A stretch of 64,000 nucleotides of DNA from Brachyspira intermedia PWS/A. GTDB lineage: Bacteria; Spirochaetota; Brachyspiria; Brachyspirales; Brachyspiraceae. The position numbers were made by a program, and so were the translations under genes. Shown one piece after another: positions 2,581 through 63,993 of this stretch. The DNA lies in the NCBI RefSeq assembly GCF_000223215.1, contig NC_017243.1:2170001-2234000 (forward strand). The letters run 5' to 3'. Each line of letters opens with the position of its first letter. Within the stretch, counting starts at the first letter, position 1. The notes beneath the pieces are model-generated. The model did no database searches, was not told where the DNA came from, and was given only the letters and a program-made list of their open reading frames with translations.

Positions 2581-4092
2581 ATGAAAAAAGTATTTATTAT
2601 ATTATTCTTGTTTAATATACTTTTGTATTCTCAGACTTTAGATGAATCGTTATTTTTAGCTGTAGAAGATAATAACATAGAAGAAGTTAAATCATATTTA
2701 GCTAAAGGAGCAAATCCAAATGCTCGAAATGAATACGGTCTTACATCATTAATGACAGCTGCTGTAAGCGGAAACTATGAAATGGTTAAATTTTTATTAG
2801 AAAATGGTGCTGATATAAATACTAAAGACAATGATGGAAACACTGCGTTATATTATAATATTTGCTATGATCATTATGGAGAAGAAGAAAAACTAGAAAA
2901 TGCTAAAAAAATATTTAATTTATTAATAAAATACGGTGCTGATGTAAATACTAAAGACAATGATGGAGCATCACTTCTTAATAAATCTTATAGAGCTTCA
3001 ACAGCATTGGCACAAAATAGAGAAATGTTTAAAGTATTAGTAGAAAATGGTTTTGACTTAGAATCAAGAATAAAGGCTGGGGAGCATTCTCCTGATGATT
3101 ATGATTATACTCCTTTAATGATAGCAGCTTTAAGAAATGACTATGATATGGTTAAATTTTTAGTTGAAAAAGGTGCCGATGTAAATGCTAAAACACATTA
3201 TAGTTCTGAATATAGCTCAGTAGTAACTCCTCTATTACTCTCATTAGATGATGAACATATTGAATCTAGATATGATGAAAATTCATCTGTTGCAGAATAT
3301 TTAATAAATAATGGTGCTGATATAAATGTAACAAATGAGGATGGAGAGACACCTTTAATGTATGCTTCCAAACTTCATAATATAAAAGTGGTAGAACTTC
3401 TAATACAAAAAGGGGCAAATATAAATGCTTTCGATAATTATGGAAATACAGCCTTAATATATGGTGTAAATAATTTAGAAACAGTAAAATTATTAGTGGA
3501 AAATGGTGCAGATGTAAACTTTTATAAAGGAGGGAGTACTGCTTTAATATCAGCATGTGAGTATAGTCATGAAAGAAATATAGATGTAATAAAATATTTA
3601 GTTTCAAAAAATGCCAATATAAATGCCCAAGATAATAAAGGAGACACAGCTTTAAATAAAACTCTTGATACTTCAGATGAAGGAAGTATTGATATACTAG
3701 ACTTTGAAATAGCTAATTTTTTAATAGAGCAAGGTGCTGATGTAAACATAAAGAATAAACGAGAATATACTCCTTTGATATATCTTGGTATGGGTGAAGG
3801 TAATTTTAATAATAAAAGTTTTCAGGAATATCGTATAGAATTAGCTGAAGTTTTATTAGAAAAAGGTGCAGATATTAATGCTCAAGATTATAATGGATAC
3901 ACTTCTTTAATTTGGGCTTGTGCATCATCAGGATCAAGATTTGCTGAACCATTTGTTAAATTTCTAGTAGAAAAAGGAGCCGATGTAAATATAGAAGATG
4001 ACCATGGAGATACTGCTTTAGATATAGCAGAAGATCTTAAACTTAGAAAAATTGCAGGTATTCTAAAAAAAGCTCAAAGAAATAGAAAGTAA
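2581..4092 (+). CDS. Secreted ankyrin-repeat protein, 503 residues
   Basis: Residues 1-18 form a typical signal peptide (KK, then a hydrophobic stretch ending near YSQ) with no lipobox Cys. The rest is a run of about a dozen 33-residue ankyrin units, recognisable by repeated GADVN/GADIN turns and TPLMYA/TALIYG helices. Ankyrin arrays bind proteins; the partner is unknown, and the signal peptide suggests action in the periplasm or outside the cell. From the sequence YSQTL onward it is closely similar to the lipoprotein at 39564-41921, with many stretches identical at the DNA level, including the 3' end and terminator. The two differ mainly at the N-terminus and in repeat number. Start chosen from the ATG behind AGGGGG. 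Ankyrin identity is certain; function is not known. Confidence 0.9.
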   Translation: MKKVFIILFLFNILLYSQTLDESLFLAVEDNNIEEVKSYLAKGANPNARNEYGLTSLMTAAVSGNYEMVKFLLENGADINTKDNDGNTALYYNICYDHYGEEEKLENAKKIFNLLIKYGADVNTKDNDGASLLNKSYRASTALAQNREMFKVLVENGFDLESRIKAGEHSPDDYDYTPLMIAALRNDYDMVKFLVEKGADVNAKTHYSSEYSSVVTPLLLSLDDEHIESRYDENSSVAEYLINNGADINVTNEDGETPLMYASKLHNIKVVELLIQKGANINAFDNYGNTALIYGVNNLETVKLLVENGADVNFYKGGSTALISACEYSHERNIDVIKYLVSKNANINAQDNKGDTALNKTLDTSDEGSIDILDFEIANFLIEQGADVNIKNKREYTPLIYLGMGEGNFNNKSFQEYRIELAEVLLEKGADINAQDYNGYTSLIWACASSGSRFAEPFVKFLVEKGADVNIEDDHGDTALDIAEDLKLRKIAGILKKAQRNRK

Positions 4093-5842: not shown

Positions 5843-6646
5843 TTGAAGAAATATTTTATTTTAATGTTAATAATATACCAATGTCTAATGCCTAATTCAT
5901 TCGACAATATAATAGATGCATCCGATTATCAAACTTATGAAAATATAGAGTATTCCAATATTCCCAAAAAGCCTACTATATTTGATTATATAAATCATAA
6001 AAATGAATTATCTGATATTATAGAAAGAATAAATAAATATTTGGATAATAATGGAGATATAAACGCTGTAAATAAAAATGGTAATACTCTTCTTATGGAA
6101 GCTGTAGCTATAGGATACTATGATTTAGCTGATTATTTAGTAGAAAAAAAAGCTGATATATCTATAACTAATGCTAATGGAGAGAATGCTTTAATACTTT
6201 CCGCACATTATCCATATATAATGAATCTTCTTATAAATAACAATGCTGATATAAATACTGCTGACAATAATGGCAAAACAGCTTTACATTATGCATGTGA
6301 ATATGGAGATTTATATTCAGTAAAACTTCTTATAAAAAGCGGTGCTGATATTAATAAAAAAGATATATTAGGAAAAACTATTCTTATGTATGCAGTTGAA
6401 AATGAACATCTTTTATTAATAAAGTATTTAGTTGAAGATTTACAAGTTGATATTAATGAAAAAGATGATTGGGGTCAAAATGCCATGTTTTATGCCACAA
6501 AAATAGATATAGCAAGATACCTTATTTATAATGATATGAATTATACAGATGTTAACTCAATAGGTTTGAAGCCTTATGAAGTTATGAAATATAACGGCTA
6601 TATAAATGTATCAAATTATCTGCAAAAGTTAGAAAAAAGGAGATAA
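5843..6646 (+). CDS. Small secreted ankyrin-repeat protein, 267 residues
   Basis: The start is TTG, placed by AGGAG eight bases upstream and by the signal peptide it yields (KK, then a hydrophobic stretch through about residue 17). After a non-repeat segment to about residue 70 there are five to six ankyrin units, with the turns GDINAVNKNGNT, NADINTADNNGKT and GADINKKDILGKT. Unlike the 2581 and 39564 genes it is not a recent copy of them; the repeats are more diverged and no shared promoter or terminator is seen. It lies 27 bp after the glycosylase gene and 66 bp before the next gene. Its role is unknown; export is inferred from the N-terminus. Confidence 0.85.
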   Translation: MKKYFILMLIIYQCLMPNSFDNIIDASDYQTYENIEYSNIPKKPTIFDYINHKNELSDIIERINKYLDNNGDINAVNKNGNTLLMEAVAIGYYDLADYLVEKKADISITNANGENALILSAHYPYIMNLLINNNADINTADNNGKTALHYACEYGDLYSVKLLIKSGADINKKDILGKTILMYAVENEHLLLIKYLVEDLQVDINEKDDWGQNAMFYATKIDIARYLIYNDMNYTDVNSIGLKPYEVMKYNGYINVSNYLQKLEKRR

Positions 6647-39563: not shown

Positions 39564-41921
39564 ATGAAAAATATTATTTCCATTATTTCTATTTTTGTTT
39601 TAATAGCCTGCAGCTGCGGTAACAGCGGCAATACTAAACAAACAGAAAATACTCAAACTAATCAAACTCAAACAAATGAACAAGTATATATTAATCCAAC
39701 AACTACAAATACTAATGAATATGTTCAAGGTATAAAAATGTATCCTATGTATTCTCAGACTTTAGGTGGATCGTTATTTTTAGCTGTAAAATATAATAAC
39801 ATAGAAGAAGTTAAATCATATTTAGATAAAGGAGCAAATCCAAATGCTCAAGATGAATACGGTTTTACAGCATTAATGTACGCTACTTTAATCGATATAG
39901 CAAAATTACTTATAGAAGAAGGTACTGATGTCAATATTAAAGATAATGCAGGTGCTACATCATTAATGTATGCTGCTAGAGATACAAATTATGAAATGGT
40001 TGAATTTTTATTAAAAAATGGTGCTGATGTAAATATTAGAGATACATCAGGAAAAACTGCATTATATTATAGTATTCAGCATGATAGTTTCGGACAAGAA
40101 AATGCTATAAAAATACTTAATTTATTAATAAAATACGGTGCTGATGTAAATACTAAAGACAATGATGGAGCATCTCTCCTTGATGTATCCTATAGAATTT
40201 CAGAATCTTTTGATAAAAATAAAGAAATGTTTAAAATATTAGTTGAAAATGGTTTTGATTTAGAGTCAAGAATAAAGACGGGTAGATCTGATTATGATTA
40301 TACTCCTTTAATGATAGCAGCTTTAAGAAATGATTATGATATGGTTAAATATTTGCTTGATAAAGGTGCCAATCCTAATACAGTAAATAATGAAAACAAA
40401 ACAGCTTTAACGATTGCTAATGATTATGGAAAATTTGATATTTCAAAATTACTTATACAACAAGGTGCAAATATAAACACACAAGATGAAGAGGGCTGTA
40501 CAGCATTAATGAACGCTACTATGATAGGAGACTATGAAATGGTTAAATTTTTATTAGAAAATGGTGCCAATATAAATACTAAAGACAATGATGGAAACAC
40601 TGTATTATATTATAATATTCGCTATGATCATTACGAAAAAGAAGAAAAACTAGAAAATGCTAAAAAAATATTTAATTTATTAATAAAATATGGTGCTGAT
40701 ATAAATACTAAAAACAATTATGGAGCATCACTTCTTGATACAGCTTATACAACAGAATTGGCACTAAATAGAGAAATGTTTAAAGTATTAGTAGAAAATG
40801 GTTTTGACTTAGAATCAAGAATAAAGGGTGGGGAGTATTATTCTCCTGCTGATTATGATTATACTCCTTTAATGATAGCAGCTTTAAGAAATGACTATGA
40901 TATGGTTAAATTTTTAGTTGAAAAAGGTGCCGATGTAAATGCTAAAACACATTCTGAACATAGCTCAGTAGAAACTCCCCTATTACTCTCATTAGATAAT
41001 GAACATCCTGACTATAGATATTATTATTATAAAAATGAAAATTCATCTGCTGCAGAATTTTTAATAAATAATGGTGCAGATATAAATGTAACAAATGAGG
41101 ATGGAGAAACACCTTTAATGTATGCTTCCAAACTTCATAATATAAAAGTGGCAGAACTTCTAATACAAAAAGGTGCAGATATAAATGTAATAAATGAGGA
41201 TGGAAAGACACCTTTAATGTATGCTTCCAAACTTCATAATATAAAAGTGGTAGAACTTCTAATACAAAAAGGTGCAGATATAAATGCTTTCGATGATTAT
41301 GGAAATACAGCCTTAATGTATGGTGTAAATAATTTAGAAACAGTAAAATTATTAGTTGAAAACGGTGCTGATGTAAACTTTTATAAAGGAGGAAGTACTG
41401 CTTTAATATTAGCATGTAAACCTAGTTTGGAAATAAATATAGACGTAATAAAATATTTAGTTTCAAAAAATGCTGATATAAATGCCCAAGATAATGAAGG
41501 ATACACAGCTTTAAACAAAACTCTTACTACTATGCCAGACTTTGAAATAGCTCATTTTTTAATAGAGCAAGGTGCTGATGTAAACATAAAGAATAAAAAC
41601 CAATATACTCCTTTGATACATCTTGGTATGCTTGAAGGTAGTTTTTATAATATAAGTTTTCAGGAAAATCGTATAAAATTAGCTGAAGTTTTATTAGAAA
41701 AAGGTGCAGATATTAATGCTCAAGATTATAATGGATACACTTCTTTAATGTGGGCTTGTACAAGAAAATCTAATGAATCATTTGTTAAATTTCTAGTAGA
41801 AAAAGGAGCCGATGTAAATATAGAAGATGACGATGGAGATACTGCTTTAGATATGGCAGAGAATCTTAAACTTAGAGAAATTGCAGATATTCTAAAAAAA
41901 GCTCAAAGAAATGTAAAGTAA
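39564..41921 (+). CDS. Ankyrin-repeat lipoprotein, 785 residues
   Basis: The N-terminus is a lipoprotein signal with lipobox LIAC (Cys at about residue 17), followed by a Ser/Asn/Thr/Gln-rich linker of about 50 residues. From YSQTL on, the protein matches the secreted 503-residue paralogue at 2581, but with about 20 ankyrin units. The extra length comes from an internal duplication: the block with MFKILVENGFDLESRIK and DYDYTPLMIAALRNDYDM occurs twice, and one 33-residue unit is present as two adjacent near-identical copies. It is expected to sit on an outer or inner membrane leaflet and bind a partner. Strong promoter, strong terminator. Function unknown. Confidence 0.9.
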   Translation: MKNIISIISIFVLIACSCGNSGNTKQTENTQTNQTQTNEQVYINPTTTNTNEYVQGIKMYPMYSQTLGGSLFLAVKYNNIEEVKSYLDKGANPNAQDEYGFTALMYATLIDIAKLLIEEGTDVNIKDNAGATSLMYAARDTNYEMVEFLLKNGADVNIRDTSGKTALYYSIQHDSFGQENAIKILNLLIKYGADVNTKDNDGASLLDVSYRISESFDKNKEMFKILVENGFDLESRIKTGRSDYDYTPLMIAALRNDYDMVKYLLDKGANPNTVNNENKTALTIANDYGKFDISKLLIQQGANINTQDEEGCTALMNATMIGDYEMVKFLLENGANINTKDNDGNTVLYYNIRYDHYEKEEKLENAKKIFNLLIKYGADINTKNNYGASLLDTAYTTELALNREMFKVLVENGFDLESRIKGGEYYSPADYDYTPLMIAALRNDYDMVKFLVEKGADVNAKTHSEHSSVETPLLLSLDNEHPDYRYYYYKNENSSAAEFLINNGADINVTNEDGETPLMYASKLHNIKVAELLIQKGADINVINEDGKTPLMYASKLHNIKVVELLIQKGADINAFDDYGNTALMYGVNNLETVKLLVENGADVNFYKGGSTALILACKPSLEINIDVIKYLVSKNADINAQDNEGYTALNKTLTTMPDFEIAHFLIEQGADVNIKNKNQYTPLIHLGMLEGSFYNISFQENRIKLAEVLLEKGADINAQDYNGYTSLMWACTRKSNESFVKFLVEKGADVNIEDDDGDTALDMAENLKLREIADILKKAQRNVK
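41076..41285 (+). repeat. Recent 99-bp tandem duplication of one ankyrin unit
   Basis: Two adjacent 33-codon units, each containing TPLMYASKLHNIKV and LLIQKGADIN, differ at only a few bases. The paralogue at 2581 has a single copy of the unit. This shows recent change in repeat number. Confidence 0.85.
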
Positions 41922-42286: not shown

Positions 42287-43114
42287 TTATCTATTATATA
42301 AATACATCATAGCAGTAAGTACGGAACCGCCTAAATTTCTAGCCTTATCAGAAATGGTAAAGCAATTATCATATTCAGATTTTCTAGGATCAATATCAGC
42401 TATTTTCAAACCCTTATGAACTTTGAAACCATCTTTTATAATGCCTCTTAAAAGCCCATCAAAAGTAGCAAGCACTTCTATTTTTTCATTGTTATTATTT
42501 ATATATGCTATAACTTCTTTTTCTTTAACAAAGTCGCCTATATTTTTCACGTTTTCAATAATGCCGTCAGAACTTGCATGTATTACTCTTTCAGCTTCTT
42601 TACCGCCTATATTACCGGGAATTCCTGTATTAGGTATAGCCTCGCCTTCTAAATACATTCTTCCAAGATTATGACCTCGCATAGTTTCTATAACAATATC
42701 ACAGTCTTTACCGGCAGTAAAACCTGGACCTAATGCTATAGTATATTTAGCCATAGATTTATTGGTACCAAGATTTTTTTTAGCAATTATGGCATCAATT
42801 AAAAATGTTGGTTTTATATTTTTTAGTATATCACAATTAGGATCTATAAGAATAGGAATCTTTTTATAATTTTTATTTGCAATTATATTAAGAGCTTCTT
42901 CATAGCTTTTTACCAATACAGATTCAATATCCTCAACTTTACTTTCACCATCATAAACAGCTTCGGATAATGCAACCCTTCTTCTAATAGAAGAGGGGTA
43001 TTGTGTTTCTAATACAATAACTTTGAAATGAGCCTTGTATAAGGAATACACAATACCTGTAGCTAAATCACCAGCTCCTCTTACAATTACAAGTTCATCG
43101 TTAAATAAACTCAT
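42287..43114 (-). CDS. yqeB: Selenium-dependent molybdenum hydroxylase system protein YqeB
   Basis: 275 residues of the EF2563/YqeB family. N-terminal Rossmann-type segment IVRGAGDLATGIVYSLYKAHF, then LETQYPSSIRRRVALSEAV, IALGPGFTAGKDCDIVIETMRGHNLG and GIPGNIGGKEAERVIHA. The family marks genomes that insert a labile selenium into Mo hydroxylases; the exact reaction is not known. It follows the XdhD-type gene by 15 bp, with only a weak ribosome site. A YqeC-MocA fusion at 61 kb supplies the matching partner. Confidence 0.9.
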   Translation of the reverse strand: MSLFNDELVIVRGAGDLATGIVYSLYKAHFKVIVLETQYPSSIRRRVALSEAVYDGESKVEDIESVLVKSYEEALNIIANKNYKKIPILIDPNCDILKNIKPTFLIDAIIAKKNLGTNKSMAKYTIALGPGFTAGKDCDIVIETMRGHNLGRMYLEGEAIPNTGIPGNIGGKEAERVIHASSDGIIENVKNIGDFVKEKEVIAYINNNNEKIEVLATFDGLLRGIIKDGFKVHKGLKIADIDPRKSEYDNCFTISDKARNLGGSVLTAMMYLYNR

Positions 43115-43129
43115 AATAAATAAAATAAA

Positions 43130-45700
43130 TTATCTTGAATAAGGAGTATTTTTAAGTGGTAGTTCTGTTTGGAACTCACCGTTAAACTTATAATAAGCTA
43201 AAGCAACAGCAGGAGCAGTAGGTATACTAGAAATCTCTCCTATACCTGTAGCACCATAACCATAAGGAACACCAGGTTTTTCTATAATAATAGATTCAAC
43301 ATCTGGAGTTTTATCAGCTCTGAATAATCCTAAAGTACCGAATTTAACTTTAGGAACACAATCTTCAAGCGGGAATTTTTCTGTCAAAGCATAACCTAAA
43401 GACATAACAACACCGCCTTCAATTTGTCCTTCCAAAGCTATAGGGTTAATAGCCTTTCCTATATCATGAGCAGCAACTATTTTATTTATAGTACCGTCAT
43501 CATTAAGTATACATACTTGTGTAGCATAACTGTATGCAACGTGAGAAACAGGATGAGGTTTATCAACGCCCATTTTATCTGTAATAGTTAACCATTCGCC
43601 GTAATATTCTTTTCCTTCTAAATCTTTTAATGTTTTACCAGCCAAATCTTTCTTAAGGTCTTCACAAGCTCTCTTACAAGCTTCACCTGTAATAAGTGTT
43701 TGTCTTGAACCTGAAGTAGTACCGGAGTCAGGAGAAGTTGCAGTATTAGGCTGATGAATTATTATCTCATCATCATTCAAATCAAGAGTTTCTCCAGCTA
43801 TTTGATAAAGTACTGTAGCAATACCCTGTCCTATACAAGAAGCAGCAGAGTATACATTAACTTTTCCGTCTTTTACTACCAAACGAACTCTTCCTGTGTC
43901 AGGCAAACCAACACCTACACCAGAGTTTTTCAAAGAACAAGCTATACCAACATTTTTATTATTATAATAAATGTCTTTAACAGCTTCTAATGTTTCAACA
44001 AGTCCTGTAGCCTCATCAGCTATTTGATAGTTAGGAAGCACTTGACCAGGACGTATAGCATTTCTATATCTTATTTCCCAAGGATCTAAACCGCACATTT
44101 CAGCAAGCAAGTTTATATTCATTTCAGTAGCAAAACAAGACTGAGGTACGCCGAATCCTCTGAATGGTCCAGTTGGAGGGTTATTAGTATAGAAAGATTT
44201 ACCCTCTATATCTATAACTTGATAATTATAAGGACCAGCAGCATGTGTACAAGCTCTTTGAAGTACAGGGCCTGATAATGAAGCATAAGCACCGGCATCT
44301 GTAATTAAAGTAGCTTTCATAGCTGTAAGTATACCGTTTTCATCACAAGCAGTAGTCATATCTATGCTCATAGGGTGACGTTTTGGGTGCCAGTTTATAC
44401 TTTCTTGTCTTGTAAGTTTAAATTTAACAGGTCTTTTTGTTCTATATGCCATTATAGCTGCATAATGCTGAACACTCATATCCTCCTTACCACCAAATCC
44501 GCCGCCTACATATTTATTTTCTACTACAACTTTTTCTGCATCTATACCTAAAGCCAAAGCAACCTCTTTTTTAGTATCATAAACACTTTGGTCGCTTGAA
44601 TATACAAATATTCCATCTTCATTGAAAGGCATAGCAACAGCAACTTCTGCTTCCATAAATGCATGCTCTGTCCAAGGAAGTTCATAATGTTTTGTAACTT
44701 TATATTTAGATTTAGCTATTACTTCATCAGCATTACCTTTAACTAATCTTTCATGAGTAAGTAAATTGCTTTCTCTTTCTTCATGAACTAAAGGAGCACC
44801 CTCTTTCATAGCTTCCTGAGGATTTCTTACCAATGGTAATTCTTCATATTCTATTTTTACTAAATCTCTAGCTTTTTTAGCAGTAGCTTCATCTTCAGCA
44901 ACGATTAAAGCTAAACCGTCAGCGATAAATCTTGTAGTTTCGCCTTCACCGATAAGTACATCCCAGTCATGGAAAATATGTCCGATTTTCTTAGCACCAG
45001 GTAAATCTTTAGCAGTTATTACATCAACTACGCCTTTTAAAGCTTTTGCTTCGCTAATATCTATTTTTAATATTTTAGCTCTTGGATATTTAGTTCTTAC
45101 AGCAACCCCATGAAGCATACCTTCTAACTCTATATCATCACAGTATTCGCCAATACCTAAAGCTTTTTCTTTAGCATCTACTCTAGCAATATTTCTATCG
45201 CCTAATTTTACTTTACCTTTGTATTCTTTAACATCAATATTTTCTCTAATCATTTTAGCAGCTAATTCTATAGCATCAATGATTTTTTTGTATCCTGTAC
45301 ATCTGCAAATATTATTTTTAATAGCAGCAACAATTTCAAGTCTTGTAGGATTAGGATTTTTATCTATTAATCCTTTAGCACATATAACCATGCCAGGTAT
45401 ACAGAATCCGCATTGAACGGCCCCTGCAACTGCAAAAGCATGAGCATAAATATCTTTTTCTCTTTGAGTAAATCCCTCTATAGTTTGTACGCTTTTACCC
45501 TGCAATCTTCCTATAGTTTGTATACATGCTTTAGTAGGTTTTCCATCTATCAAAACAGTACAAGTTCCGCAAGCACCTTCAGAACATCCGTCTTTAACTG
45601 ATTTACATTTACAGTCATTCCTAAGAACATCCATTAACTTTCTGTCTGAGTCAAAGCTCATCTCTTTACCATTAATGATAATCTTGGCAATCTCGCCCAT
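43130..45700 (-). CDS. xdhD: Molybdenum hydroxylase, FeS-Mo fusion without FAD domain (XdhD type)
   Basis: 856 residues. Residues 1-155 bind two [2Fe-2S] clusters: GCSEGACGTC with KAC, and QCGFCIPG with CRCTGY. From about 165 the Mo-binding part follows: GVAVRTKYPRAKIL, GGGFGGKEDMS, and near the end GYGATGIGEISS with the catalytic Glu. There is no FAD domain, so electrons must pass to another flavoprotein; YgfK encoded just upstream is the obvious candidate. AAGGAGG precedes the ATG at 45700; the nine extra upstream codons overlap that site. The E. coli homologue is XdhD, proposed to act on purines or hypoxanthine. Selenium dependence is inferred from yqeB and yqeC. Confidence 0.92.
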   Translation of the reverse strand: MGEIAKIIINGKEMSFDSDRKLMDVLRNDCKCKSVKDGCSEGACGTCTVLIDGKPTKACIQTIGRLQGKSVQTIEGFTQREKDIYAHAFAVAGAVQCGFCIPGMVICAKGLIDKNPNPTRLEIVAAIKNNICRCTGYKKIIDAIELAAKMIRENIDVKEYKGKVKLGDRNIARVDAKEKALGIGEYCDDIELEGMLHGVAVRTKYPRAKILKIDISEAKALKGVVDVITAKDLPGAKKIGHIFHDWDVLIGEGETTRFIADGLALIVAEDEATAKKARDLVKIEYEELPLVRNPQEAMKEGAPLVHEERESNLLTHERLVKGNADEVIAKSKYKVTKHYELPWTEHAFMEAEVAVAMPFNEDGIFVYSSDQSVYDTKKEVALALGIDAEKVVVENKYVGGGFGGKEDMSVQHYAAIMAYRTKRPVKFKLTRQESINWHPKRHPMSIDMTTACDENGILTAMKATLITDAGAYASLSGPVLQRACTHAAGPYNYQVIDIEGKSFYTNNPPTGPFRGFGVPQSCFATEMNINLLAEMCGLDPWEIRYRNAIRPGQVLPNYQIADEATGLVETLEAVKDIYYNNKNVGIACSLKNSGVGVGLPDTGRVRLVVKDGKVNVYSAASCIGQGIATVLYQIAGETLDLNDDEIIIHQPNTATSPDSGTTSGSRQTLITGEACKRACEDLKKDLAGKTLKDLEGKEYYGEWLTITDKMGVDKPHPVSHVAYSYATQVCILNDDGTINKIVAAHDIGKAINPIALEGQIEGGVVMSLGYALTEKFPLEDCVPKVKFGTLGLFRADKTPDVESIIIEKPGVPYGYGATGIGEISSIPTAPAVALAYYKFNGEFQTELPLKNTPYSR

Positions 45701-45730
45701 ATATTCCTCCTTATATATTAAAATCAAATA

Positions 45731-45796: not shown

Positions 45797-48766
45797 TTAT
45801 TTTAATATTAAATACTTATAGTTATTAAATACGGCATCAACTATAGTGTAAACACCATTGTTCTTTCCGCCAACTTTATAAGATTCTTCTTTACCATCAA
45901 TTCTAAGTTTAGCATTTCCTTCTTTATCTAAGAATAAGAAACCATCATTTTTAGAATTTTTCATATCATCTTCAGTAGCAAACAATGTAAATTTATCTTT
46001 ATAAGGAGCAGAACTATAAGGACAGAATGTTTCACAGTTACCGCATTCATTACACATATAATCAACGTGTATGATTTGTGATATCTTAGCATGTCCTGCA
46101 ACTTTTATAGATACATTAGCTCTGTTAGGACAAACTTCAGTACAGCTTTCACAAATATAATCACAGCTTAAACATCTAGTAGCTTCAGGGTCTTTTGATA
46201 CTTCTTTCAAATTACCTTTTTTACTATAAGATATTTCTTCAGTAGAAACAGAAGGCAAATCAGGAGCAACTGCTTTTCCTAATATAGCTTCAGCAACAAC
46301 TTTAGCATCTCTTATAGCTTCAACTATAGTAGCAGCACCATATAAACCATCACCAGCAACATAAACATTTTTGATAGATGATTCATTAGCAGCAGAACAT
46401 TTTGGCTTGCCTTTATCATCAACATCTATACCATTAGATTTGTAGAAGTCAGATTCAATTTGCTCACCAATAGAAGCTATAACACTGCTAGCAGGTACTT
46501 CTACTGTTTCGCCAGTTTCAACAACATTTCTTCTGCCTTTTTCATCATAGTCAGATAATTCCATTTTTTTACAAAGAAGTTTACCGTTTTCTAATTTAAC
46601 AGGTGCAAGTAATTCCATAAACTCAACACCATCTTCTAAAGCCTCTTGAAGTTCTTCTTCTAAAGCAGGCATATATCTCTTAGTTCTTCTATAAACTAAT
46701 CTAACATTTTTAACGCCTTTATTTTTCTTAGCAGCACGAGCAGCATCCATAGCAGTGTTACCGCCTCCAATTACTACTACATCTTCTCCTAAAGCAACGT
46801 TTCCATTAGTTTTATTGAACTCTTCTAAGAATTTAAGAGCGTTCATAGATTCGCCGGCTTCAAGTTTTAAAGGCATATTTTTATGAGCACCTATACAAAC
46901 AACAGTGTAATCATAATTTTTAGCAAATTCTTTTATATCTTTAATTTCTTTGCCTAATTCAAATTTAACACCCATTTGCTTACATAAGCTAACATCATTT
47001 CCAATCTCTTCAGCACTTATTCTGAAGCTAGGTATAATATTAGCAACTACACCGCCAGCTTTTTCTCTCTTATCGAATACTGTAACATCAACACCAGCAC
47101 GAGCCAAGAAGAATGCAGCAGAAAGTCCGGCAGGACCAGCACCTATGATACCAGCTTTTTTACCTATAGAAGCAGCAGGTTTTAAAGTGCCTATTACTTT
47201 ACTATATCCAGCTTTAGCAGCTTCTAATTTGCAAGCTCTAATGCTTACAGGCTCTTCATAGAATTGTCTAGTACATTTATCCATACAAGTATGAGGACAT
47301 AATATACCTGTAGCAAATGGAAGAGCGTTTTTCTCTATAATAACTTTGAAAGACTCTTCATATTTTCCTTCAGAATTAAGTCTTATATAAGTAGTAAGGT
47401 CTTGATGAATAGGACAAGTTTCCATACAAGGAGCTATATAACAATCGATCAAAGGTACTTTTTTATTAACTTTTCTGCTAGCAAGAGGCTTAACAGGTTT
47501 AATATGATGTTTGCTTTTTTTGCTCCATTCAATGATTTTTTCAGTTTTAGCTACATCTACTTTAGTAAATGCTTTTGGTTCTTTAAGGTTTTTAGCTATT
47601 TGCTCGCCTCTTTGATAACCGCCTGATTTTAAGAAAGTAGTAGCCATAGTTACAGGCCAAATTCCTGCATCTATAACATCATTGATATTGAAATAATCAC
47701 ATCCGCCTGAATACGAAATTCTCAATTTTCCGTCAAAATCTTTACTCAATCTTGAAGCAACTGTCATAGAAAGTGGGAATAAAGATTTACCAGACATGTA
47801 CATTTCTTCAGATGGTAATTCTTTTTGTTTAACATCTACAGGGAATGTATTAGTTATTTTTACACCGAATGCAAGTGAATTATCTTCAGCTAATTTTTGA
47901 AGTCTTTGAAGCATAGGAATTGCATCGCTGTATTGTAAGTCATCATTAAAGTGGAAATCGGTAAATGATATATAATCATAACCCATTTCATCTAAAGTTT
48001 TTCTAGCATATTCATAACCTAATAAAGTTGGGTTACATTTAACAAAAGTATTTAATTTCTTTTCTGTGATTAGGTATGAAGCTATTTTTTCTATTTCTGT
48101 AGGAGGACATCCATGAAGAGTAGATAAAGTAACAGAATTACATACATCAGCATTGATTTTATCTATATCTTCTTTTTTGAAGTTTTGGAATCTGCTGATA
48201 TTATCAGTTAACCATTGTTTACATTCTTTGAAAATAGGAGTATTAGAAGCATCTTTCATGCCTTCAATGAAAGTATCGATTTTTTCAGTTTTAATGCCTT
48301 CATAATCATAACCAACAGACATATTGAACTGAAAACCGTCCATATCTCCTAAATCCCATTCTTTAGCAATTACTTTTAAAGCAACCCAAGCCTTAACATA
48401 TTCATCAAAAGCCTGAGGAACATAAAGTTCTGTAGACCATTCACAGTTATAACATTCATCATTAGCTGTGATACAAGGTTTAGCAACGCATTTGCTTAAT
48501 TCTTCTCCGTCCATTTTCTGAACAGTTTTAAGTTCAAAGAATCTGCTTCCTGTATAATAAGCAGCAACTATGTTTTGAGCTAATTGAGTATGAGGTCCTG
48601 CTGCAGGTCCTATAGGAGTTTCTAATTTTCTTCCAAAAATTTCGTAATATTTAGCTTTATCAGCTTTAAATGCTCTTGAAACACCAAATACTTTACCAGA
48701 TTTTTTTTCTTCTAGAATCCAATTCATAAGGTTTCCAAAAGGTATGGGTGTCATTACATCACTCAT
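45797..48766 (-). CDS. ygfK: YgfK, iron-sulfur flavoprotein (putative selenate reductase subunit)
   Basis: 989 residues. Residues 1-400 resemble a dihydroorotate-dehydrogenase-type barrel (ETPIGPAAGPHTQ, STLHGCPPTEIEK). Residues 430-830 resemble the glutamate synthase small subunit: a Cys-rich stretch (CMETCPIHQDLT, CPHTCMDKC), an FAD site GIIGAGPAGLSAAFFLARAG, and an NAD(P)H site VVIGGGNTAMDAARAAKK. The C-terminus holds two 4Fe-4S motifs (CLSCDYICESCTEVCP and CNECGNCETFCP). In E. coli it was tied to selenate reduction, but its constant place in purine clusters suggests NAD(P)H-linked reduction of a purine intermediate or electron delivery to XdhD. GGAGG precedes the ATG. Confidence 0.92.
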   Translation of the reverse strand: MSDVMTPIPFGNLMNWILEEKKSGKVFGVSRAFKADKAKYYEIFGRKLETPIGPAAGPHTQLAQNIVAAYYTGSRFFELKTVQKMDGEELSKCVAKPCITANDECYNCEWSTELYVPQAFDEYVKAWVALKVIAKEWDLGDMDGFQFNMSVGYDYEGIKTEKIDTFIEGMKDASNTPIFKECKQWLTDNISRFQNFKKEDIDKINADVCNSVTLSTLHGCPPTEIEKIASYLITEKKLNTFVKCNPTLLGYEYARKTLDEMGYDYISFTDFHFNDDLQYSDAIPMLQRLQKLAEDNSLAFGVKITNTFPVDVKQKELPSEEMYMSGKSLFPLSMTVASRLSKDFDGKLRISYSGGCDYFNINDVIDAGIWPVTMATTFLKSGGYQRGEQIAKNLKEPKAFTKVDVAKTEKIIEWSKKSKHHIKPVKPLASRKVNKKVPLIDCYIAPCMETCPIHQDLTTYIRLNSEGKYEESFKVIIEKNALPFATGILCPHTCMDKCTRQFYEEPVSIRACKLEAAKAGYSKVIGTLKPAASIGKKAGIIGAGPAGLSAAFFLARAGVDVTVFDKREKAGGVVANIIPSFRISAEEIGNDVSLCKQMGVKFELGKEIKDIKEFAKNYDYTVVCIGAHKNMPLKLEAGESMNALKFLEEFNKTNGNVALGEDVVVIGGGNTAMDAARAAKKNKGVKNVRLVYRRTKRYMPALEEELQEALEDGVEFMELLAPVKLENGKLLCKKMELSDYDEKGRRNVVETGETVEVPASSVIASIGEQIESDFYKSNGIDVDDKGKPKCSAANESSIKNVYVAGDGLYGAATIVEAIRDAKVVAEAILGKAVAPDLPSVSTEEISYSKKGNLKEVSKDPEATRCLSCDYICESCTEVCPNRANVSIKVAGHAKISQIIHVDYMCNECGNCETFCPYSSAPYKDKFTLFATEDDMKNSKNDGFLFLDKEGNAKLRIDGKEESYKVGGKNNGVYTIVDAVFNNYKYLILK

Positions 48767-58210: not shown

Positions 58211-58698
58211 TGCCTATAAAATTTAAAGTAAATGGAAATGAAGTTAATACAGAATTAGATCCTTTAACTAGATTAATAGATTTTATAAGAGATGAATTAA
58301 AACTCACAGGTACTAAAGAAGGATGCGGAGAAGGAGAATGCGGTGCTTGTGCTGTACTTATGGATGGAAAAGTAGTGAACTCTTGCTTGATACCTATAAT
58401 TTTATGCGAGGGAAAAGAAATTATAACAATAGAAGGATATTCTGAAACTGAAAGAGGTAAAATAGTAACAAAGGCTTTTGTAGATGAAGGAGCTGTTCAA
58501 TGCGGTTTCTGTACTCCGGGAATGATAATGTCATCTGAAGCTATTTTGAATGATACTAAAGGAAAACCTACAGAGTATGAAGTAAGAAAAGGATTATCAG
58601 GCAATCTATGCAGATGCACTGGATATGATCATATAGTAAGTGCAGTATTAAGAGCATCTGATATAGCTTTTAAGGAGGGTAAAAATTTATGGCAGTAA
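58210..58698 (+). CDS. xdhC: Xanthine dehydrogenase, [2Fe-2S] subunit
   Basis: 162 residues with both cluster motifs: GCGEGECGACAVLMDG with SC for the plant-type cluster, and QCGFCTPGM with NLCRCTGYDHI for the second. It passes electrons from the Mo centre to FAD. Starts within the stop of the Mo subunit (GGAGGTGAT upstream) and overlaps the FAD subunit gene by 10 bp. Order Mo, FeS, FAD here differs from the Mo, FAD, FeS order of E. coli xdhABC. Confidence 0.94.
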   Translation: MPIKFKVNGNEVNTELDPLTRLIDFIRDELKLTGTKEGCGEGECGACAVLMDGKVVNSCLIPIILCEGKEIITIEGYSETERGKIVTKAFVDEGAVQCGFCTPGMIMSSEAILNDTKGKPTEYEVRKGLSGNLCRCTGYDHIVSAVLRASDIAFKEGKNLWQ

Positions 58699-59530
58699 CT
58701 TTAAAAGCTAAAAATATTAATGAAGCATTAGATTTTAGAGCCTCAAATGATTCTGTGATTTTTGCAGGCGGTACAGATCTAATGGTAGAACATCTTAGAG
58801 GAAGCAATTTAATAGCAAAATTTGATAAGCCTATATTATTTATAAATGATATAGATGAATTAAAAGGCATAAAAGAAGATGAAAATAATATCATTATAGG
58901 GGCATTAACTACATTTGATGAAATTATTAAATCAGATTTAACTCCTCAAGTATTGAAAGACAGTGCCTCAGGAATAGCAGGACCTCCTATCAGAAATATT
59001 GCCACTATAGGAGGAAATATATGCAATGCCTCACCTTCCGCTGATAGCCTGCCTTCTTTATATGCAATGGATGCAGTTTTAGTATTAAAAAGTAAAAATT
59101 CTCAAAGAGAAGTAAAGATAAAAGATTTTATTACAGGAGTAAGTAAAACAATATTAAAAAATGACGAAATACTTACGCATATTATAATACCGAAAAAGAT
59201 TATAAATATTCTTTTTATAGAAAAATAGGAACTAGAAAAGCTAATGCATTATCAAAACTTGCAATATGTGCATTAGTTTGCAAAGAAAATGACAAGTACA
59301 GATTCAAAATAAGTTTTTGTACATTAGGTATTACAATTACAAGAGATGAAAGTATAGAGGAAAAATATATTGTTTCAGATGTAAATGAATGGAAAAACAA
59401 TATTAAATCTATACAAGAAGCATATTCTTCAATTATGAATCCTAGAAACAGTGCTAGGTCAACAGCTTTATATAGGAAGAAATGTGCTTTAAATTTAATT
59501 GAATATTTTTTAGATAATATAAATCTATAA
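58689..59530 (+). pseudogene. xdhB: Xanthine dehydrogenase, FAD-binding subunit, frameshifted
   Basis: The first frame (to 59228) encodes the FAD domain: FAGGTDLMVEHLRG and IRNIATIGGNICNASPSADS. It breaks in the A-run at 59193-59197. With one A added (six instead of five) the frame runs on as KDYKYSFYRKIGTRKANALS to a stop at 59530, giving about 280 residues, the normal length with the C-terminal flavoprotein domain. GGAGG precedes the ATG. Either the subunit is truncated and the dehydrogenase lacks a full flavin protein, or the run was misread. The intact neighbours argue for a recent or artefactual change. Confidence 0.9.
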
Positions 59531-59556
59531 AATATAATAAAAAATTGGAGTTAATT

Positions 59557-60942
59557 ATGAGTACAAATGAAAAAACTCAAGACGTTTTGTTTCAGTACGA
59601 AGGTATGCCCAAAATGTCTCAAGCTTTTCCGTTAGCTATTCAGCACGTAGTAGCAATGATCGTTGGTTGTGTTACACCAGCACTTATTGTATCATCTGCT
59701 GCAGGTCTTAAAAGCGGAAGTCCAGAGCAGATATTACTAGTTCAGTCATCTTTAGTATTTGCTGCTATTTCAACTATTATTATGTTGTTCCCAATACCTA
59801 TTACAAAAAACTATCACATAGGTGCTAGACTTCCTATGATAATGGGTGTTAGTTTTGCTTATGTATCTACTATGCAGTCTATTGCTAGAGGTCCTGAAGG
59901 TACTGGTCTTGGTGTTAGAGGTATAGCTATAATACTTGGAGCTCAAATCATAGGTGGTGTAGTTGCTATAATATTTGGTTTTGCCGTTGATAAAATAAGA
60001 AAACTATTCCCTCCTCTAATTGCTGGTACTGTTGTTTTCACTGTTGGTCTTTCTTTATACCCTACAGCTGTTAGATATATGGCTGGTGGAAGCACTTTGT
60101 ACAAAATAAATGGTGAAGTTGTTCCTTTCGGTTCTTGGCAGTATTGGGCTGTTGCTGGTATAACTCTTGTTGCAGTTATTTTCTTCAACCAATTTACTAA
60201 AGGATTCCTAAAATTAGCTTCTGTATTATTCGGATTAATAGTAGGATATATAGCTGCTTTCTTCTTTGGTATGATTAACTTTACAAGCGTTGCTAATGCC
60301 GGTATTTTCCAAGCTCCTAAACTTATACCTTTTGGAATAGAGTTTGATCCTTCTGCTGCTATTGCTATATCTCTTTTATTTGCTGTTAACTCTGTTCAGG
60401 CAATAGGAGACTTCTCTGCTACTACTTCAGGAAGTCCTATAGGAAGAATGCCTACAGACCAAGAATTAAAATGCGGTATCACTGCTTATGGTCTTACTAA
60501 TATATTATGTTCTGTATTCGGATGTTTACCAACTGCTACTTACAGTCAGAACGTAGGTATAGTTGTTACTACTAAAGTTATTAACAGAATCGTTTTAGGT
60601 ATAGCTGCTATCATAATATTAATAGCTGGTTTATTCCCTAAATTCTCAGCTTTACTTACTACAATACCTTCTTGTGTATTAGGAGGAGCTACTATAATGG
60701 TATTTGCTTCTATCGCTATGACTGGTATTAAATTGGTATTCACTGAAAATATGGGACCTAGAAACACATTAATAGTTGGACTTGCTGTTGCTTTAGGTAT
60801 GGGTACTGTTCAAGTTGGCGGTGCTTTAGATACTTTCCCTGCTTGGGCTAAAACAGTATTCGGAAGCAGCCCTGTTGTTATAGCTACTTGTGTTGCTATT
60901 ATACTTAACGTTATTCTTCCTAAAGAAGAAGCTAAAAAATAA
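59557..60942 (+). CDS. NCS2 purine (xanthine/uracil) permease
   Basis: 461 residues, about 14 membrane helices. NCS2 signature SQNVGIVVTTKVINR (QN-x-G...T), the acidic-residue region SVQAIGDFSATT, and N-terminal MSQAFPLAIQHVVAMIVGCVTPAL. It most likely brings in xanthine, urate or uracil; cluster context favours xanthine or urate. The start is the ATG at 59557 because GGAG is at 59547-59550; the TTG at 59545 overlaps that site. Follows xdhB by 26 bp. Codon bias toward GCT/GGT suggests high expression. Confidence 0.92.
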   Translation: MSTNEKTQDVLFQYEGMPKMSQAFPLAIQHVVAMIVGCVTPALIVSSAAGLKSGSPEQILLVQSSLVFAAISTIIMLFPIPITKNYHIGARLPMIMGVSFAYVSTMQSIARGPEGTGLGVRGIAIILGAQIIGGVVAIIFGFAVDKIRKLFPPLIAGTVVFTVGLSLYPTAVRYMAGGSTLYKINGEVVPFGSWQYWAVAGITLVAVIFFNQFTKGFLKLASVLFGLIVGYIAAFFFGMINFTSVANAGIFQAPKLIPFGIEFDPSAAIAISLLFAVNSVQAIGDFSATTSGSPIGRMPTDQELKCGITAYGLTNILCSVFGCLPTATYSQNVGIVVTTKVINRIVLGIAAIIILIAGLFPKFSALLTTIPSCVLGGATIMVFASIAMTGIKLVFTENMGPRNTLIVGLAVALGMGTVQVGGALDTFPAWAKTVFGSSPVVIATCVAIILNVILPKEEAKK

Positions 60943-61048: not shown

Positions 61049-62233
61049 TTAAAATAAATCTTCTCTTGTATCTATATCTTTTAATTTATTTTCATCTATA
61101 GTGTAAAAAAAACAATCTTCAATATTCTTTTTTATAATTCTAATTGCACCAAAATCATTTTCTAAACTCAAAATATCATTAACATACTTAGATGAAAAAA
61201 TAGCAGGATTAGAAGGTCTGTTATCTGTAAACATAGCACCTATATTTTTATGACTATAATAAAAATATTTTAACATATTGAATATATCATTACTTTCTAA
61301 AAAAGGCATGTCGCATACAAAAAAAGCAAATGAATCAGATTTTAGTTTTAATGCCTCATTAATTCCAAGTTTTATAGAAGCACTTATACCCTCATTATGT
61401 CTGTCATTATAAAAAGCATAATAATCTTTATTTTCAAATTTTTTATTTATTATATCATCATATACACTTACAACTATTACATCAGTTTCTATATTTTTTA
61501 GCTTTTTATCTTCTTTGAATAATTTTCTCACATCGGATATTTTATCTATTGTTTTTTCAAATAATGTTTTGTTATTAAGAGATTTGAATTTATGAATTAA
61601 TTTATTTCCATTAAAACGTTCACTTTTACCAGATGCAAGTATGATAAAAGCTGTTTTTTTATAATCAATATAATTATTCTCTGTAAAATCATTTAAATAT
61701 AGTTTTATATTGCTGCATTTATATTTAAGTTTATTAATATAATATTTATCAACTATATAATTAATAGTATCTAAATCAACTATTCTTTCAGGATCTATTT
61801 CATAGCATAAATTATATCTGAAACAAACCTCTTTAAACTTTCTTCCTAAACTATGAAACCCCATAATAACAACTATTTTGGATATTCTGCCATATAAAAA
61901 ACTTGGTATAGCAGGTTCTTCATCATTAGGTATTTTTAAAGAATGATATTTCGCTCCGTCTGCCTCTATCAAAACAATATCAGCATATTTAATTGCATTT
62001 TCTAATTGTTCATCTCCTGCATACATTAACTTTTTTTCATCATACTCTTTTCCTAGTACAATAATATTATCATTATCAAAGGAATGATTATTTATAGTTT
62101 CTGTATAGTTTTCAGGTTTGAATATTTTAGTAGTAGTTGTGATTACTATTTTTTTATCTTTATTATTTTCTGCTATTTTTTTTATATATGAGGTTTTACC
62201 CCCGGCACCGCATACAATAATAATTTCTGACAT
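61049..62233 (-). CDS. YqeC-MocA fusion, Mo hydroxylase maturation protein
   Basis: 394 residues in two parts. Residues 1-190 match YqeC, the selenium-dependent hydroxylase accessory protein (IIIVCGAGGKTSYIKKIA P-loop-like start, ITTTTKIF, VLIEADGAKYHSLKIP). Residues 195-394 match MocA-type Mo-cofactor cytidylyltransferases (FIILASGKSERFNGNKLIHKF, HNEGISASIKLGINEA, FVCDMPFLESND, NPAIFSSKY). MocA attaches CMP to the molybdopterin of hydroxylases; YqeC's role is unknown. In other genomes the two are separate neighbours. The fusion links the selenium and Mo-cofactor steps in one protein. It lies 2 bp after the TrkH gene on the same strand. Confidence 0.88.
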   Translation of the reverse strand: MSEIIIVCGAGGKTSYIKKIAENNKDKKIVITTTTKIFKPENYTETINNHSFDNDNIIVLGKEYDEKKLMYAGDEQLENAIKYADIVLIEADGAKYHSLKIPNDEEPAIPSFLYGRISKIVVIMGFHSLGRKFKEVCFRYNLCYEIDPERIVDLDTINYIVDKYYINKLKYKCSNIKLYLNDFTENNYIDYKKTAFIILASGKSERFNGNKLIHKFKSLNNKTLFEKTIDKISDVRKLFKEDKKLKNIETDVIVVSVYDDIINKKFENKDYYAFYNDRHNEGISASIKLGINEALKLKSDSFAFFVCDMPFLESNDIFNMLKYFYYSHKNIGAMFTDNRPSNPAIFSSKYVNDILSLENDFGAIRIIKKNIEDCFFYTIDENKLKDIDTREDLF

Positions 62234-62235
62234 AA

Positions 62236-63993
62236 TTATCCTATAGTTACTTCGCCTGTAGGTAAATCTATTATACCATATTTTCCTTTATTGATAGAAC
62301 CTATACTCATAAATAAAGTAAGATAACCAACACGTCCTATAAACATTAAAACTATAAGTATTAATTTACTCCATACTGTAACTGTAGGAGTTATACCAAG
62401 AGAAAGCCCTACTGTACTTATTGCAGATATAGCTTCAAAAAGTATAGGCATCATAGTATTTGACTTTTCTATATAAAACATAATAAATGAAGCTAATACA
62501 GAAATAGCTATTGCAAGCGTAACTATAGCAACAGATTTATTAACTGTATCATCTTTTATTTTTCTGCCATTAACTACAATATATGGTCTATTAAAAATTG
62601 CTGTGATTACTGAGAACATAAATACAAATAAAGTAGTAGTCTTTACTCCACCTCCTGTACTGTTTGGAGAAGCTCCTACAAACATTAAAAATATAACAAC
62701 TCCTATAGTAACATTACTCATAGAATTATAGGCAATGGTTTCAAATCCTGCTGTTCTTGGACTTACACTCTGAAATAAAGAAACTAATATCTTTTCTTTT
62801 AATGGCAAATCTTTAAGAGAATTTGAATATTCATTGAAAAATATAAAAGCACTTCCAGCCAATATAAGAATAATACTTGTAAATATTACTATTCTAGCCT
62901 GAACATCAAATACATATCTTTGTCCTTTTATCTTATTAACTATAGCCCTAGTAACAGTAAGCATAACAGGATATCCTATACCTCCAAGAGTTATAAGAAG
63001 CATAATAGTAACATTAACTACAACATTTGCAGAATATTGATGTAGATTATCCGTATAAAGAGAAAATCCTGCATTACAAAATGCACTTATAGAATGAAAT
63101 ATTGAAGAAAATATACGCGTTCCTAATTTAGCATTAGTATCCATAACAGTAAATAAAGAAACAGCACCTAATAATTCTATTAAAAATGTGGATAAAAAGA
63201 TCACTTTTATAGTAGATTGTATTATATCTTTATTCTGTGTATTAAACATTTCTAAAGTTCTTACCCTATCCTGAACACTACCCTTACTTATAGAAAATAA
63301 AAGCACTATTGCAGATATGGACATAATACCAAGTCCGCCTATTTGAATAAGAGCAATCAATACAATTTGTCCAAATAAAGTAAATTCTTTTGAAATATCT
63401 ATAACACTAAGCCCCGTAACACATACTGCACTAGTCGCCGTAAATAAAGCATCTACAAATGATAATTTACCTGTTACTGTACTTAAAGGTAAATATAAAA
63501 GCAAACTTCCCAATGTTATAACAAATATAAAAGATGCTATAATCATCTGATATAATGTAAATTTAGAATATGAAAGCCTAAGCCAATTTATAACTATAAC
63601 TAAAAAGAAAAGTATAGAACCTGCTATAGTCCATATTATTCTATTTGCATATACATCATAATATTTTCTGCTGAAAAAATTTAAAAGAAGTAAGCCTACA
63701 AGCTGAATAATAGGCACAACTATATAGAGTTTCCTTGGTGCTATTCTTATTTGGTCTATAAGTATAAATACAAAACATATTGTAATAATATTTATAATCT
63801 TATCATAATTATATATATAAAAATTATAAATGCTTATCTGTCTTACCTGCATTAAAAGTACAAATATTGCAAATATAGAACCTGCTATTGCTATTAAATT
63901 TGATATTCTTCTTAAGAACTCATCTATAGCCTGAATAAATGTTTTATTTGGATTATTTTGATTATTAACTTTATTATTAAAAATATTTTTCAT
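62236..63993 (-). CDS. TrkH/KtrB-type potassium uptake channel subunit
   Basis: 585 residues. The four pore repeats can be read by their selectivity-filter segments: SAVCVTGLSV, SAFCNAGFSLY, SPRTAGFETI and SAISTVGLSLG, each with the conserved Gly. The first 150 residues contain several extra membrane helices before the first repeat, longer than in plain KtrB. It imports potassium coupled to sodium or proton gradients and needs a TrkA/KtrA regulatory subunit, which is not in this window. The ATG is 8 bases from the right edge, so its upstream region is not visible. It probably shares a transcript with the YqeC-MocA gene. Confidence 0.92.
   Translation of the reverse strand: MKNIFNNKVNNQNNPNKTFIQAIDEFLRRISNLIAIAGSIFAIFVLLMQVRQISIYNFYIYNYDKIINIITICFVFILIDQIRIAPRKLYIVVPIIQLVGLLLLNFFSRKYYDVYANRIIWTIAGSILFFLVIVINWLRLSYSKFTLYQMIIASFIFVITLGSLLLYLPLSTVTGKLSFVDALFTATSAVCVTGLSVIDISKEFTLFGQIVLIALIQIGGLGIMSISAIVLLFSISKGSVQDRVRTLEMFNTQNKDIIQSTIKVIFLSTFLIELLGAVSLFTVMDTNAKLGTRIFSSIFHSISAFCNAGFSLYTDNLHQYSANVVVNVTIMLLITLGGIGYPVMLTVTRAIVNKIKGQRYVFDVQARIVIFTSIILILAGSAFIFFNEYSNSLKDLPLKEKILVSLFQSVSPRTAGFETIAYNSMSNVTIGVVIFLMFVGASPNSTGGGVKTTTLFVFMFSVITAIFNRPYIVVNGRKIKDDTVNKSVAIVTLAIAISVLASFIMFYIEKSNTMMPILFEAISAISTVGLSLGITPTVTVWSKLILIVLMFIGRVGYLTLFMSIGSINKGKYGIIDLPTGEVTIG

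What the first reader, a model, noticed from the sequence alone, without database searches (positions are those of the whole stretch)
61049..62233. YqeC fused to MocA
A selenium-system accessory protein and the Mo-cofactor cytidylyltransferase, usually separate genes, form one protein. It suggests that selenium insertion and cofactor maturation are physically coupled, and may give a hint to YqeC's role.
Basis: partly seen in the sequence, partly recalled or inferred. Interest (0 to 1): 0.6.

Follow-up and report, generated by a model that had tools for sequence, protein, structure and literature searches.

The report
YqeC–MocA fused cofactor maturation protein
In this spirochaete, an accessory protein of selenium-dependent molybdenum enzymes and the enzyme that finishes their molybdenum cofactor are made as one protein; the fusion is real and conserved, but the same fusion was recorded in 2008 and is common in other bacteria.

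Summary
Window 61049-62233 (-) is one uninterrupted 394-codon gene with a YqeC domain (residues 4-183; TIGR03172 112.5 bits, cut-off 73) and a MocA-type nucleotidyltransferase domain (residues ~196-393). Sixteen genus genomes carry it intact and both halves are under purifying selection (median dN/dS 0.19 and 0.16). It is the genome's only MocA/MobA-type gene and lies near a Se-dependent xanthine dehydrogenase/YqeB/SsnA/YgfK purine cluster; selD is present.

It is not a new kind of fusion. Zhang et al. 2008 (PMC2432076, Table 1) list it in Moorella thermoacetica. I confirmed it in 36 of 114 Bacillota and 19 of 95 Chloroflexota YqeC-bearing genomes sampled and in another spirochaete family. Fused YqeCs are not one clade (AU p = 0.0024).

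Best mechanism (inferred): YqeC is a SIMIBI-class P-loop NTPase, distantly similar to MobB, acting beside MocA as MobB does beside MobA; the fusion couples CTP-dependent completion of the cofactor to hand-over towards the enzyme. Selenium insertion by YqeC is not shown; deleting yqeC in C. difficile gave no clear phenotype. Special here is a compact YqeC lacking the usual NKxD motif.

The parts
61049..62233 (-). yqeC-mocA fusion gene, 394 aa
   Evidence: conserved in the genus
61685..62224 (-). YqeC domain (residues 4-183), compact form
   Evidence: TIGR03172 112.5 bits; PF19842 102.8 bits; model pLDDT 91
62189..62209 (-). P-loop GAGGKTS (residues 9-15)
   Evidence: G-x-G-G-K-[TS] in every aligned YqeC that covers it; G[AG]GGKT in all intact genus orthologs
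61955..61966 (-). EADG motif after a Walker-B-like strand (residues 90-93)
   Evidence: E, D and G invariant in 52 of 52 other YqeC domains
61649..61684 (-). short linker between the domains (residues 184-195); the usual post-NKxD tail of YqeC is missing here
   Evidence: alignments
61055..61648 (-). MocA-type nucleotidyltransferase domain (residues 196-393)
   Evidence: TIGR03310 best match, below cut-off; NTP_transf_3 over cut-off; fold match to 3d5n and E. coli MobA 1e5k
42287..43114 (-). yqeB (SDMH accessory protein), same system
   Evidence: TIGR03309 350 bits, cut-off 220
43130..45727 (-). selenium-dependent xanthine dehydrogenase, likely client enzyme
   Evidence: TIGR03311 1319.7 bits, cut-off 830
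45797..48766 (-). ygfK, cluster member
   Evidence: TIGR03315 1362 bits
48864..50195 (-). ssnA, cluster member
   Evidence: TIGR03314 618.6 bits
56075..59228 (+). second xanthine-dehydrogenase-like enzyme (Mo, Fe-S and FAD subunits; the FAD subunit is cut short), possible second client

Best explanation
A bifunctional maturation protein for molybdenum hydroxylases. Shown: one chain with an N-terminal P-loop NTPase domain (YqeC) and a C-terminal MocA-type nucleotidyltransferase domain, the only such transferase found in this genome. Inferred: the MocA half uses CTP to turn Mo-molybdopterin into molybdopterin cytosine dinucleotide; the YqeC half is a SIMIBI-class NTPase that plays for MocA the part MobB plays for MobA, binding nucleotide and helping load or release the cofactor towards YqeB/XdhC and the apo-xanthine dehydrogenase, where YqeB and SelD-derived selenium complete the site. 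The fusion keeps the two steps side by side.
For: Domain matches. YqeC P-loop and EADG motifs are near-invariant, and N[KQR]x[DE], a GTPase G4-like motif, is found in 44 of 52 other YqeCs. The model of the YqeC domain (pLDDT 91) aligns with SRP-type and GPN-loop GTPases at Z 9-10.7 over about 135 residues; a YqeC profile hits FtsY and ArsA in the PDB. Profile comparison with MobB: 92% probability over 118 columns, reaching from the P-loop to past the EADG region, against 82% over 27 columns for FtsY. MocA half: PDB matches 3d5n (phmmer 3.4e-14) and E. coli MobA. Residues G202, R206, K211, G282, D308, P310, P343 and D388 match those invariant in the other MocAs aligned. No other MocA/MobA-like gene among the genome's NTP_transf_3 matches; MoeA, MoaA, MoaC and XdhC are present. 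Recurrent fusions and neighbourhoods of yqeC, mocA and yqeB. Purifying selection on both halves.
Against: The MobB similarity is distant and partly generic to P-loop proteins; MobB was not among the 50 structural rows shown. This YqeC lacks the NKxD motif, so a GTPase role for it is doubtful. In C. difficile a yqeC deletion had no clear phenotype, although complementation data hinted at a need (PMC11448449). The C-terminal half is below the MocA equivalog cut-off, so CTP specificity is inferred from family and context.
Confidence: 0.5

Rival explanations
1. YqeC is a selenium-insertion factor: it carries or activates selenium from selenophosphate and, joined to MocA, puts it on the cofactor as the dinucleotide is formed.
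For: Phylogenetic co-occurrence with SelD and YqeB (PMC2276186, PMC2432076); selD in this genome; Se-dependent xanthine dehydrogenase in the window.
Against: selD here is not diagnostic, since selA and an adjacent selB-like gene are also present. C. [quoted passage not shown] No conserved Cys stands out as a selenium carrier in YqeC (position 8 is Cys in this genus but mostly Val elsewhere).
Confidence: 0.2
2. YqeC is a regulatory or sensing NTPase that tunes MocA or transcription according to cofactor or molybdenum supply; the fusion only ensures co-expression at equal amounts.
For: HTH_1-YqeC fusions in Bacillota; weak deletion phenotype in C. difficile.
Against: The HTH form is a minority; repeated fusion with MocA and YqeB points to a direct part in maturation.
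Confidence: 0.2
3. In this genus the YqeC half is a degenerate remnant that now only serves as a domain or dimerisation module for MocA.
For: Compact YqeC without the NKxD motif and C-terminal tail; frame breaks near the N-terminus in two genus genomes, G004 and G007.
Against: P-loop and EADG strictly kept and dN/dS about 0.19 in the YqeC half, like the MocA half.
Confidence: 0.1

Closest known systems
HP2-COG2068 (YqeC-MobA-related) fusion gene of Moorella thermoacetica, Zhang et al. 2008, PMC2432076 Table 1
   Same: Same two families fused in one gene, in an organism of the Se-cofactor trait.
   Different: The spirochaete protein is shorter (394 aa against a 1368-bp gene) with a compact YqeC lacking the NKxD motif; different phylum.
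E. coli yqeC (b2876) and mocA/ygfJ (b2877)
   Same: Same families, adjacent, in the same purine/selenium cluster with ygfK, ssnA, ygeX, ygeY, ygeW.
   Different: Two separate genes, divergently transcribed, in E. coli.
MobB-MobA pair
   Same: P-loop NTPase accessory beside a molybdopterin nucleotidyltransferase (MobB described as a GTP-binding accessory of MobA-dependent guanylylation in PMC13197769); distant profile similarity YqeC-MobB.
   Different: GTP and DMSO-reductase-family enzymes instead of CTP and hydroxylases; only distant sequence similarity.
YqeC-YqeB (L029, L131), YqeB-MocA (L062) and HTH_1-YqeC (L183, L187, L189, L199) fusions
   Same: Fusions within the same small set of proteins.
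   Different: Different partner combinations.

Membership tests
YqeC (TIGR03172) | Score above the curated cut-off | tested here: met
   112.5 bits vs 73.05
YqeC (TIGR03172) | GxGGKT P-loop and EADG motif | tested here: met
YqeC (TIGR03172) | N[KQR]x[DE] motif and C-terminal tail usual in the family (a usual trait, not a published defining one) | tested here: not met
   NDFT at the aligned place; motif found in 44 of 52 others
YqeC (TIGR03172) | Co-occurrence with selD and yqeB | tested here: met
MocA/YgfJ (TIGR03310) | Score above the curated equivalog cut-off | tested here: not met
   83.4 bits vs 186.45, though the best-scoring NCBIfam model for that half
MobA-like NTP transferase domain (PF12804) | Score above gathering cut-off and matching fold | tested here: met
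   71.5 bits vs 27; 3d5n, 1e5k
MocA/YgfJ (TIGR03310) | CTP-specific cytidylyl transfer to Mo-molybdopterin | not testable with these tools
   needs an enzyme assay
SIMIBI-class P-loop NTPase | Fold and P-loop | tested here: met
   Z up to 10.7 to SRP54/FtsY and GPN GTPases; the short P-loop is atypical
MobB | Clear sequence membership | tested here: inconclusive
   hhalign 92% over 118 columns, 14% identity; no NCBIfam MobB hit

The most novel reading that the evidence does not exclude
YqeC is a MobB-like NTPase dedicated to MocA, defining a separate cytosine-dinucleotide branch for selenium-dependent hydroxylases; the repeated YqeC-MocA, YqeC-YqeB and HTH-YqeC fusions show it sits at the node of cofactor completion, delivery and control.
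Probability: 0.3. Interest if true: 0.5.

Novelty: new member of a known kind. Interest (0 to 1): 0.27.

Why it matters
How labile selenium gets into molybdenum hydroxylases is unsolved and YqeC has no assigned function. The fusion is a natural test object: one chain in which nucleotide binding by YqeC can be tested against the activity of its own MocA half, in an organism with no second MocA or MobA to mask the effect.

Tried and rejected
Junction artefact or frameshift: rejected, intact in 16 genus genomes. A separate MocA or MobA elsewhere in the genome: none; the other NTP_transf_3 matches read, by my inspection of their sequences, as sugar nucleotidyltransferases, GlmU-like, KdsB, IspD and GlgC. 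Orphan SelD (which would tie SelD to this system alone): rejected, selA and a selB-like gene present. A single origin of the fusion: rejected by the AU test, p 0.0024, on a quick tree with long branches. Direct Foldseek of the YqeC domain gave no match better than E 0.005; the structural aligner then placed it with SIMIBI GTPases, with MobB not among the 50 rows shown. A first alignment was too diverse for a contig search. Long open frames without a partner domain in L152, L156 and L241 have N-terminal extensions of unlikely composition, which I take as unread upstream frame, not fusions; L170 has a methyltransferase-like N-terminal stretch by eye, not followed up.

Full report
Observation. 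The gene at 61049-62233 on the minus strand is a single open frame of 394 codons. Its first half is YqeC (TIGR03172, 112.5 bits, residues 4-183; PF19842), its second half a MobA-like nucleotidyltransferase whose best NCBIfam model is MocA/YgfJ, though below that model's cut-off. The predicted structure of the whole chain has two confident domains (mean pLDDT 90) and a short linker.

Conservation. Of 26 genomes of the genus seen in two searches, 19 have the gene; 16 are intact full-length fusions, two (G004, G007) are broken near the N-terminus and one (G024) runs into an assembly gap. Pairwise dN/dS medians are 0.19 (YqeC half) and 0.16 (MocA half), and the P-loop is kept throughout. The phylum is Spirochaetota: two sampled phylum-mates are identical in their YqeC domain to loci named as Spirochaetes. 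That the genus is Brachyspira is my inference from gene content and composition; no tool named it.

Setting. The window carries a Se-dependent purine cluster: hydantoinase, YqeB, Se-dependent xanthine dehydrogenase, YgfK, SsnA, diaminopropionate ammonia-lyase, YgeY, YgeW and carbamate kinase, matching the E. coli cluster in content. Elsewhere the genome has selD, selA with a selB-like neighbour, and moeA, moaA, moaC and xdhC (moeA, moaA, moaC and selB by reading the sequences). The fusion is the only MocA/MobA-like gene among the genome's NTP_transf_3 matches, so this organism's cytosine dinucleotide, if made, must come from it (inference).

Distribution. Zhang et al. 2008 (PMC2432076) state that MobA-related and XdhC proteins are fused with HP1 (YqeB) or HP2 (YqeC) in some organisms, and Table 1 gives one gene for HP2 and COG2068 in Moorella thermoacetica. 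Here, with domain matches on the same frame, the YqeC-MocA fusion was confirmed in 36 of 114 sampled Bacillota genomes and 19 of 95 sampled Chloroflexota genomes whose YqeC passes the cut-off; about 20 more Chloroflexota have frames long enough but were not read. These counts are lower bounds from sampled genomes; the phylum names come from the named loci on which the searches were centred. Five named Chloroflexota loci show it too, and one spirochaete of another family (L030). A sister genus in the window's own family has an unfused YqeC (G066/L033). On a tree of 111 YqeC domains the fused state needs 10 changes, and one clade for all fused rows is rejected (p-AU 0.0024), though the tree is a quick one with long branches. 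Elsewhere yqeC and mocA are often neighbours, many overlapping.

Mechanism. YqeC has an invariant GxGGK[TS] P-loop and EADG motif, and mostly an N[KQR]x[DE] motif. The modelled domain aligns with SIMIBI GTPases (SRP54, FtsY, GPN-loop) at Z 9-10.7. Profile comparison with MobB gives 92% over 118 columns, wider than with FtsY (27 columns), but the similarity is distant. I therefore propose that YqeC is to MocA what MobB is to MobA. In this genus YqeC is compact: the NKxD position reads NDFT and the tail is gone, so its nucleotide preference may differ. Direct selenium handling by YqeC is possible but unsupported; C. difficile data favour YqeB and SelD for the selenium step (PMC11448449).

Verdict. 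A real, conserved fusion, a new member of a fusion type known since 2008, with a compact YqeC as its own trait. Its value is as a test object for YqeC's unknown function.

Noticed in passing
window 58689-59560 (+): The FAD subunit gene of the second xanthine-dehydrogenase-like enzyme stops at 179 aa (family models about 290); the rest of the protein continues in another frame just downstream, so the gene is split by a frameshift or mis-sequenced.
   Followed up: partly
L183, L187, L189, L199: In some Bacillota YqeC carries an N-terminal HTH_1 (LysR-type) DNA-binding domain, ModE-like by eye: a YqeC that may act as a transcription factor.
   Followed up: partly
L029 and L131; L062: YqeC-YqeB fusion in a spirochaete and YqeB-MocA fusion in a Desulfobacterales contig.
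   Followed up: partly
window 62236-63993 (-): A TrkH-type potassium transporter gene ends 2 bases before the fusion gene starts; TrkH lies directly upstream in 14 of the 18 genus loci checked, the window's own included, and not in a group of four.
   Followed up: partly
G007 (L018) and G004 (L007, L020): In two genus genomes the fusion gene is broken between its start and the P-loop region or just after it.
   Followed up: partly
window 2581-4092, 5843-6646, 39564-41921 (+): Several genes read by eye as ankyrin-repeat proteins, one of 785 aa.
   Followed up: no
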